Of a DNA stretch of 58,755 nucleotides, positions 48,844 through 50,456 are shown in pieces. Source of the DNA: Bacteriovorax sp. GTDB taxonomy: Bacteria > Bdellovibrionota > Bacteriovoracia > Bacteriovoracales > Bacteriovoracaceae. The notes beneath the pieces were generated by a model. The model made no database searches, had not been told where the DNA came from, and worked only from the letters and a program-made list of their open reading frames with translations. The position numbers were made by a program, and so were the translations under genes. The DNA lies in assembly GCA_014376445.1 (NCBI GenBank), contig JACMRM010000027.1, positions 1 through 58,755 of the forward strand. The letters are read 5' to 3'. Each line of letters begins with the position of its first letter. Position 1 is the stretch's first letter.

Positions 48844-49581
48844 TTAAGAATTTTTTCGAAGTTTTGACGAAGATAAGTTTTTATATAGGTGATCCGGCAA
48901 AATAACAATCTGGATCAACGGGTTGATCCCCTTGATTTTTTCAATCTGTTCCTCATAATTGGCCACATCAAAATCTCTCGGAACAATGTAGAGTTTTGAA
49001 AGCGCATTTATCAGCTCCTCTGGGCGAGTCCATTTCAACATACTCATGAAAGAGTCATCCCCCATTAAAAAATTCTTTTCAGGGATTGCCACTTTAGGCA
49101 GCCAGTTCGCTGTAGGATTGGGTCTGTTGCGTCCGAAGAAGCCTGGGTACAAAGAATAAGGTGTATCTTTTAAAGTCAGGCACAGGTTCATAAAATCGTC
49201 GTAGGGATTAAGTTTGTCTACTAACTCTTTGTGGGGATTGCAATCTGGAACAATGACAATATTTTCTTCCGGGCATAGCTCTAGACAGGCCATGTGCCCA
49301 GGATGAAATGGAAAAAAACTTCCACCGAAAAAAGTCACTGAGCCTTTAATTTCTTTTTTTAATATATCAGTTTTGATTTCACCTTTAGGCCTTGAAGAAT
49401 GAGTCGGCATGAATTTAAAAAAATCACCGAGAGAAATCAAAAGATTGAATTGATCAAGCTGAGAGAGATCGTCGAGTTTATAAATATCGCACCACTGATT
49501 GTGATGTTCTCCACCTAAATGTTCACTGTCTAATTTTACTTCCAGAGAGTTTTTAAACTCCAATGGATAAAGTAGCTGCAT
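48844..49581 (-). CDS. NadD-like nicotinate-nucleotide adenylyltransferase / nucleotidyltransferase
   Basis: 245 aa; VTFFGGSFFPFHPGHMACL, DCNPHKE, LMGDDSF, C-terminal SSSKLRKNS. Confidence 0.75.
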   Translation of the reverse strand: MQLLYPLEFKNSLEVKLDSEHLGGEHHNQWCDIYKLDDLSQLDQFNLLISLGDFFKFMPTHSSRPKGEIKTDILKKEIKGSVTFFGGSFFPFHPGHMACLELCPEENIVIVPDCNPHKELVDKLNPYDDFMNLCLTLKDTPYSLYPGFFGRNRPNPTANWLPKVAIPEKNFLMGDDSFMSMLKWTRPEELINALSKLYIVPRDFDVANYEEQIEKIKGINPLIQIVILPDHLYKNLSSSKLRKNS

Positions 49582-49591
49582 CCTTTAATCC

Positions 49592-50080
49592 TTATTCGAA
49601 ATCGCGGTCCATGACCGTTTTTCTGCCTTCACTGCGCGCTTTGGCCACGGCCTGGTCAGTATGACGTCTTACAATATTTGAAAGCATATCCATCACGTTT
49701 GCCGATGTACTGAGATCGTACTTATCTTTAATATATTGCTTGAGTTTCGAAGCGACAATCAGGATTTCATCTTCAGATGCAGAACCCGAAACTTCAGAAG
49801 TACTACTTACTGATTTTGAGTTCACCATAATTCTTCTTGGAGCATTGTCATCATTTTCAGCTAAGTAGTTTTCCTTCCTGGGCGATCTATTTTCTTCCGC
49901 CCAGGAACTTTTATGATTCATAACCGGGTTGTGGAGGTTCCAACAGTCTACTGAACAGTAAACCAGTTTGCGGCAAGTGCTGACGTTGCATGCCTGATAG
50001 ATTGTATTGAAGCCGATTTCTTTTTTACAGCTACCGCATTTTCGCCAATAAGTTACTTCCGTCACTCTCACTCCTACCAA
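49592..50080 (-). CDS. MYND-like zinc finger fused to a C-terminal histone-fold domain
   Basis: 162 aa; CGSC-x12-CNVSTC-x5-CSVDCWNLHNPVMNH; C-terminus ILIVASKLKQYIKDKYDLSTSANVMDMLSNIVRRHTDQAVAKARSEGRKTVMDRDFE resembles archaeal-type histone alpha1-alpha2 and the AKxxGRKTVxxxD signature. Confidence 0.65.
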   Translation of the reverse strand: MVGVRVTEVTYWRKCGSCKKEIGFNTIYQACNVSTCRKLVYCSVDCWNLHNPVMNHKSSWAEENRSPRKENYLAENDDNAPRRIMVNSKSVSSTSEVSGSASEDEILIVASKLKQYIKDKYDLSTSANVMDMLSNIVRRHTDQAVAKARSEGRKTVMDRDFE

Positions 50081-50111: not shown

Positions 50112-50456
50112 ATGAATTTTGAAACCGAATATAAAAACATCCGCTTTAAAATCTCTCTCGAAAAAGAAGTTTATGAAGATGCGAGTCTTCTTATGGGTGA
50201 TAAATTTAATCGGCTTCCAAATCAGACCATGATTGAGATAAAAAAAGGTGCGCTCGGCCCTTACAATCTGATTATTACTTCAGATGATGACGATGAGATG
50301 GAATGCACGCATTATTTCAGTGGCATTCTTTTAACCACTGATGAAAAAGATTTATTGGATGAATTGGGATCTTATCTGGAGCAGGAAAATATTCTGGATG
50401 ATATTCTGGCCATTAGAAAAAAATACGCTTTTGAACCTGGTCCTTTATGGCGCTAA
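50112..50456 (+). CDS. Hypothetical acidic protein, divergent from the zinc finger-histone gene
   Basis: 114 aa ORF with a strong terminator immediately downstream. Confidence 0.6.
   Translation: MNFETEYKNIRFKISLEKEVYEDASLLMGDKFNRLPNQTMIEIKKGALGPYNLIITSDDDDEMECTHYFSGILLTTDEKDLLDELGSYLEQENILDDILAIRKKYAFEPGPLWR

What the first reader, a model, noticed from the sequence alone, without database searches (positions are those of the whole stretch)
49592..50080. MYND-like zinc finger fused to a minimal histone fold
The C-terminus (ILIVASKLKQYIKDKYDLSTSANVMDMLSNIVRRHTDQAVAKARSEGRKTVMDRDFE) has the layout of an archaeal-type histone fold: short alpha1, long alpha2 ending in A-K-A-x-x-x-G-R-K-T-V-x-x-x-D, and little or no alpha3. 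The N-terminus carries C-x2-C-x12-C-x4-C-x5-C-x3-C and downstream His residues, with a YCSVDCWxxH core like MYND/HIT treble-clef fingers. An acidic/serine linker joins them. Bacterial histones are known in Bdellovibrio (Bd0055); a zinc-finger fusion would suggest a chromatin-like protein with a separate protein- or RNA-binding head. Family novelty is not something I can establish here.
Basis: partly seen in the sequence, partly recalled or inferred. Interest (0 to 1): 0.87.

Follow-up and report, generated by a model that had tools for sequence, protein, structure and literature searches.

The report
A zinc-finger bacterial histone, already described
The gene encodes a small bacterial protein with a zinc-binding head and a DNA-bending histone tail end; this design was described in 2024 as the 'ZZ histones', so the gene itself is a new example of a known kind, although its relatives show that the zinc head also lives on without any histone.

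Summary
Window 49592-50080 (minus strand) encodes a protein with an eight-ligand zinc finger, a linker and a C-terminal histone fold. The histone half is homologous to the Bdellovibrio histone HBb/Bd0055 (profile E 4e-19; predicted fold TM 0.84-0.89 to HBb). It keeps 8 of 10 HBb DNA-contact residues. The eight Cys/His ligands are invariant in a 45-member alignment.

The architecture is not new. Schwab et al. 2024 named it 'ZZ histone', and B. bacteriovorus has one; an orthologue from another B. bacteriovorus strain was recovered here. The finger's C4+C2H2 ligand set is ZZ-like, not MYND (C6HC). Its sequence scores below cut-off for MYND and does not match the Pfam ZZ family.

Three points go beyond what I found in print. 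(1) In this genus the ZZ histone is the only histone-fold gene detected (13 of 14 genomes). (2) The finger also exists without the histone in several Bdellovibrionota families, and one genus keeps the finger with no detectable histone (6 of 6 genomes). (3) Many linkers carry a short RR-hydrophobic motif.

The finger is therefore probably an independent binding module that the histone half tethers to DNA. No biochemistry was done here or found in the open-access papers held.

The parts
49592..50065 (-). Likely coding sequence of the zinc-finger histone (GTG start at 50063-50065, stop TAA 49592-49594); listed ORF runs to TTG at 50080
   Evidence: GGAG 5 bases upstream of GTG
49880..50047 (-). 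N-terminal cross-brace zinc finger plus conserved extension (residues 12-67): C15, C18, C42, C46 as the inferred C4 site and C31, C36, H50, H56 as the inferred C2H2 site
   Evidence: ligands invariant in 45 homologues; only two spacing classes in 139 distinct fingers; predicted with mean pLDDT 94.3
49769..49879 (-). Low-confidence, Ser-rich, nearly neutral linker (residues 68-104)
   Evidence: pLDDT under 50 over most of it; composition
49823..49840 (-). PRRIMV short linear motif in the linker (residues 81-86)
   Evidence: RR-hydrophobic motif in 70 of 116 linkers against 3.9 on shuffling (pattern chosen after inspection, sequences related)
49598..49768 (-). C-terminal bacterial-dimer-type histone fold (residues 105-161), long alpha2, alpha3 of about one turn, RKTVMDRD
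48844..49581 (-). Downstream gene, 10 bp after the stop: cytidylyltransferase-like, NadD-like protein; neighbour conserved mainly within the genus
   Evidence: (15 of 58 loci)
50112..50456 (+). Divergent upstream gene, 114 aa, unknown function, neighbour conserved only among the closest relatives
   Evidence: (13 of 58 loci)

Best explanation
The protein is a ZZ histone, a member of the alpha3 'minor' bacterial histones of Schwab et al. 2024, encoded by a Bacteriovoracaceae (Bdellovibrionota) genome. Inferred mechanism: two C-terminal histone folds pair into an HBb-like dimer. That dimer binds the DNA backbone at minor grooves without sequence preference and bends it. The dimer carries two zinc-finger heads on flexible linkers. 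The head is not a DNA packer; it is an independent binding module for a protein or peptide partner that the histone half holds on the nucleoid. Shown here: homology, fold, ligand conservation, retained DNA-contact residues, and occurrence of the finger without a histone. Inferred: dimerisation, DNA bending, zinc occupancy, and partner binding by the head.
For: Histone half: phmmer 4e-9 to HBb, profile 4e-19, Foldseek TM 0.84-0.89 at 43% identity, short last helix as in HBb. Of the ten DNA-contact residues of HBb (N22, R57, S9, T53, T8, S24, K10, K12, K52, K16), eight are identical here (S111, K112, K114, K118, S126, K154, T155, R159); T8 and N22 are A110 and S124. The R51-D58 clamp is kept (R153-D160). 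Finger: eight invariant ligands in a 45-member alignment, confident fold, ZZ domains the nearest solved structures. Family: spacing C-x2-C-x12-C-x4-C and H-x5-H equals that published for ZZ histones; B. bacteriovorus orthologue at 45% identity. Finger independent of histone: 22 distinct histone-less fingers; genus g24 has the finger and no detectable histone in 6 of 6 genomes; in the window's genus no second histone is found.
Against: No binding data exist for the finger. The Foldseek match to ZZ domains is not significant (best E 0.35, TM about 0.5), and no finger sequence matches the Pfam ZZ model. Histone-less relatives show that the finger can be separate, not what it binds. Low expression and abundance of the B. 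bacteriovorus ZZ histone speak against a global packaging role but leave local roles open. Gene neighbours are conserved mainly within the genus, so they give no functional clue.
Confidence: 0.72

Rival explanations
1. The finger is a reader of histone tails, as eukaryotic ZZ domains (HERC2, p300, ZZZ3) read H3, and recruits the protein to other histones.
For: Fold similarity to ZZ domains.
Against: Schwab et al. report that the pocket residues are not conserved and only half of the proteomes with a ZZ histone have a second histone. Here 13 of 14 genomes of the genus have the ZZ histone as the only histone hit, and six genomes with the finger have no histone at all.
Confidence: 0.07
2. The finger is a second nucleic-acid binding unit (DNA or RNA), so the protein is a two-site architectural DNA bridger or an RNA-DNA adaptor.
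For: Finger is net positive (+3); histone-less relatives carry basic Pro/Ala-rich tails ending in ILRR; many linkers carry an RR-hydrophobic motif.
Against: Fold class (ZZ/MYND-like cross-brace) is mostly protein-binding in known proteins (own knowledge); the +3 charge is modest.
Confidence: 0.2
3. The C-terminus is not a histone but another helical DNA-binding bundle.
For: Pfam alone gives no significant histone hit for this one sequence.
Against: Profile E 4e-19 to HBb, TM 0.84-0.89, PF00808 matched by 31 of 45 members at E up to 1.
Confidence: 0.01

Closest known systems
ZZ histones (Schwab et al. 2024, PMC11390915; D0LYE7 of Haliangium ochraceum; one in B. bacteriovorus, probably the longer second histone Bd3044 of Hocher et al. 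2023)
   Same: N-terminal C4+C2H2 finger, linker, C-terminal bacterial-dimer-like alpha3 histone; overlapping taxonomic range (Bdellovibrionota, Myxococcota); same ligand spacing
   Different: This branch (Bacteriovoracaceae) has a loop four residues shorter between the fourth and fifth ligands (x5 instead of x9). The paper lists C51 and C53 for the third Cys pair, whereas all homologues read here have C-x3-C there, so C53 may be a misprint for C55; not checked on D0LYE7 itself.
Bacterial dimer histones HBb/Bd0055 (8cmp, 8fvx, 9ezz)
   Same: Histone fold, truncated alpha3, RKTVMxRD, alpha1 lysines
   Different: HBb has no finger and is abundant and essential; the ZZ histone of B. bacteriovorus is low in abundance
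Eukaryotic ZZ domains (p62, HERC2, BIG)
   Same: Cross-brace two-zinc layout with a C4 and a C2H2 site; nearest solved folds
   Different: No detectable sequence family match; TM only about 0.5
MYND / HIT fingers
   Same: YCS-x2-C-W core and treble-clef style spacing
   Different: MYND ends H-x3-C; here the last ligands are H-x5-H; below Pfam cut-off

Membership tests
ZZ histone (Schwab 2024) | N-terminal finger with C4 and C2H2 ligand sets in the published spacing | tested here: met
   seven of eight published D0LYE7 positions fit the x9 relatives exactly; x5 variant in this branch
ZZ histone (Schwab 2024) | C-terminal bacterial-dimer-like histone with short alpha3 and RKTxxxD | tested here: met
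ZZ histone (Schwab 2024) | Homology to a published member | tested here: met
   B. bacteriovorus kdesi orthologue L103, 45% over residues 7-162; B. bacteriovorus is stated to hold a ZZ histone
ZZ histone (Schwab 2024) | Zinc occupancy, DNA binding | not testable with these tools
   needs purified protein
Pfam ZZ domain (PF00569) | Sequence match to the family model | tested here: not met
   PF00569 is not among the families listed (41 fingers, E up to 5)
ZZ domain fold | Structural match to ZZ domains | tested here: inconclusive
   ZZ domains rank first but E 0.35 or more, TM about 0.5
MYND finger (PF01753) | Score over the Pfam cut-off; C6HC ligands ending H-x3-C | tested here: not met
   14.4 bits against 22.7; last ligands are His-His
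Bacterial dimer histone | Single histone fold without extra domain | tested here: not met
   finger domain present
Bacterial dimer histone | HBb DNA-contact residues and RD clamp | tested here: met
   8 of 10 contacts identical, clamp kept

The most novel reading that the evidence does not exclude
The finger is a histone-independent Bdellovibrionota/Myxococcota domain family of its own, with a partner unrelated to histones; 'ZZ histones' are its DNA-tethered form. Histone-less forms (finger alone, or finger plus a basic tail ending in ILRR) do the same job by other means or in trans with a separate histone.
Probability: 0.5. Interest if true: 0.5.

Novelty: new member of a known kind. Interest (0 to 1): 0.38.

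Why it matters
It shows that a zinc-finger histone is present in nearly every genome of one genus of Bacteriovoracaceae. It also supplies a natural experiment: lineages where the ZZ histone is the only detected histone, lineages where finger and histone are separate genes, and lineages with the finger and no detectable histone. Together these make the open question of what the finger binds directly testable and argue against histone-tail reading.

Tried and rejected
Pfam, NCBIfam and PADLOC scans of the single sequence gave nothing decisive; the top Pfam hit, a CAF1B beta-propeller, is a weak match across the linker and was rejected. Gene neighbourhood gave no functional link: the NadD-like and 114-aa neighbours are kept among close relatives (15 and 13 of 58 loci, window included) but hardly beyond. 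A finger tree to count losses of the histone needs at least 9 changes, but with 63 columns the supported branches force only 1, so repeated loss is suggested by the taxonomic spread, not proven. L053, which seemed histone-less, reads out of the histone into an unrelated sequence and looks like a chimera or deletion; it was left out. Six Myxococcota hits flagged histone-less by my first pattern proved to hold diverged histones by eye and by the profile search.

Full report
What is there. The ORF at 49592-50080 on the minus strand is real and intact. A GTG at 50063-50065 with GGAG five bases upstream is the likelier start than the listed TTG. Its nearest relatives are Bacteriovorax/Bacteriovoracaceae metagenome assemblies, the best at 93-94% identity.

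The histone half. Residues 105-161 match the B. bacteriovorus histone HBb (Bd0055) at E 4e-9 with the single sequence and 4e-19 with the family profile. AlphaFold2 on a 45-sequence alignment gives helices 105-115, 121-144 and 152-155 (numbering of the 156-residue model) at high confidence, with an unstructured linker. Foldseek finds HBb first, TM 0.84-0.89 over 58 columns. Using the HBb numbering of Hu et al. 2024 (PMC11317129), eight of the ten strongest DNA-contact residues and the RD clamp are identical.

The zinc finger. All eight ligands are invariant in the 45-sequence alignment. In 139 distinct fingers only two spacings occur, x9 (106) and x5 (33) between the fourth and fifth ligands; the search pattern fixed several spacings, but this one was free between 4 and 13. 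The predicted fold is confident (mean pLDDT 94.3). The arrangement C4 plus C2H2 is that of ZZ domains; the closest solved structures are ZZ domains, then MYND, none significant. By sequence it is neither: PF00569 is absent and PF01753 stays under its cut-off.

Known or not. Schwab et al. 2024 (PMC11390915) describe 'ZZ histones': an N-terminal ZZ-type finger with a C4 and a C2H2 site and a C-terminal bacterial-dimer-like histone, found mainly in Proteobacteria, including B. bacteriovorus, where the gene is weakly expressed. Hocher et al. 2023 (PMC10627809) had already noted Bd3044 as a longer second histone in 37% of Bdellovibrionota; that Bd3044 is the ZZ histone is my inference. The orthologue of another B. 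bacteriovorus strain was recovered here at 45% identity (L103). The window's protein is therefore a new member of a known kind. No experimental study of a ZZ histone was found among the papers held; most subscription literature was not searchable.

Beyond the published description. First, in the window's genus 13 of 14 genomes show exactly one histone-fold match, the ZZ histone itself, including a 99% complete genome; most other genera of the family have two or three matches, often a doublet histone. Second, the finger is found in 181 of 374 Bdellovibrionota genomes and 89 of 284 genomes sampled from the phylum of a myxococcal relative. In Bdellovibrionota it is often without a histone: alone (about 75 aa) in genus g24 of f3, in f14 and in one genus of f6, and with a basic Pro/Ala tail ending in ILRR-like residues in families f8, f24 and f28; f22 also appears finger-only from its frame length. 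In most of the f8 genomes with a histone-less finger a separate stand-alone histone gene lies elsewhere; in genus g24 no histone is detected in any of six genomes. Among the Myxococcota loci read, the main copy is fused; three further copies lack the histone (L221-L223; L221 and L222 lie in overlapping frames and are unsure). Third, 70 of 116 linkers carry an RR-hydrophobic motif (PRRIMV here) against 3.9 by shuffling; the pattern was chosen after looking and the sequences are related, so this is a lead only.

Mechanism. Most likely the histone half forms an HBb-like dimer that bends DNA without sequence preference, and carries two finger heads that recruit or hold a non-histone protein partner at the nucleoid. 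DNA binding by homology is strong inference; the partner is unknown. The histone-tail reader idea taken from eukaryotic ZZ domains is weakened by genomes with no other histone or none at all.

Limits. Genomes are partly incomplete, so absence of a second histone is strongest where many genomes agree. Group codes (f8, g24 and so on) are unnamed in the tool. The dimer, DNA complex and zinc could not be modelled here.

Noticed in passing
L043, L044, L065 (gene directly downstream of the ZZ histone): Lysine-rich H1/HC2-like protein fused to a SWIB/MDM2 domain (Pfam SWIB E 9e-28) next to a ZZ histone: two eukaryote-like chromatin features side by side.
   Followed up: partly
L224-L226, L228-L230, L117, L118, L122-L124, L127, L134, L135: Histone-less fingers with a basic Pro/Ala-rich tail ending in a conserved ILRR-like motif; most of these genomes hold a separate stand-alone histone.
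   Followed up: yes
L027, L028, L030: Finger-only proteins of about 75 aa near a membrane pyrophosphatase gene, in genomes with no detectable histone.
   Followed up: partly
L227:3616-4500: A ParB-like gene lies directly upstream of a ZZ histone and in the same direction.
   Followed up: no
L088, L094: Fifth zinc ligand Cys replaced by Asp in two ZZ histones.
   Followed up: partly
L053:2313-2621: ZZ histone that runs out of the histone fold into an unrelated sequence; probable assembly chimera or deletion.
   Followed up: no
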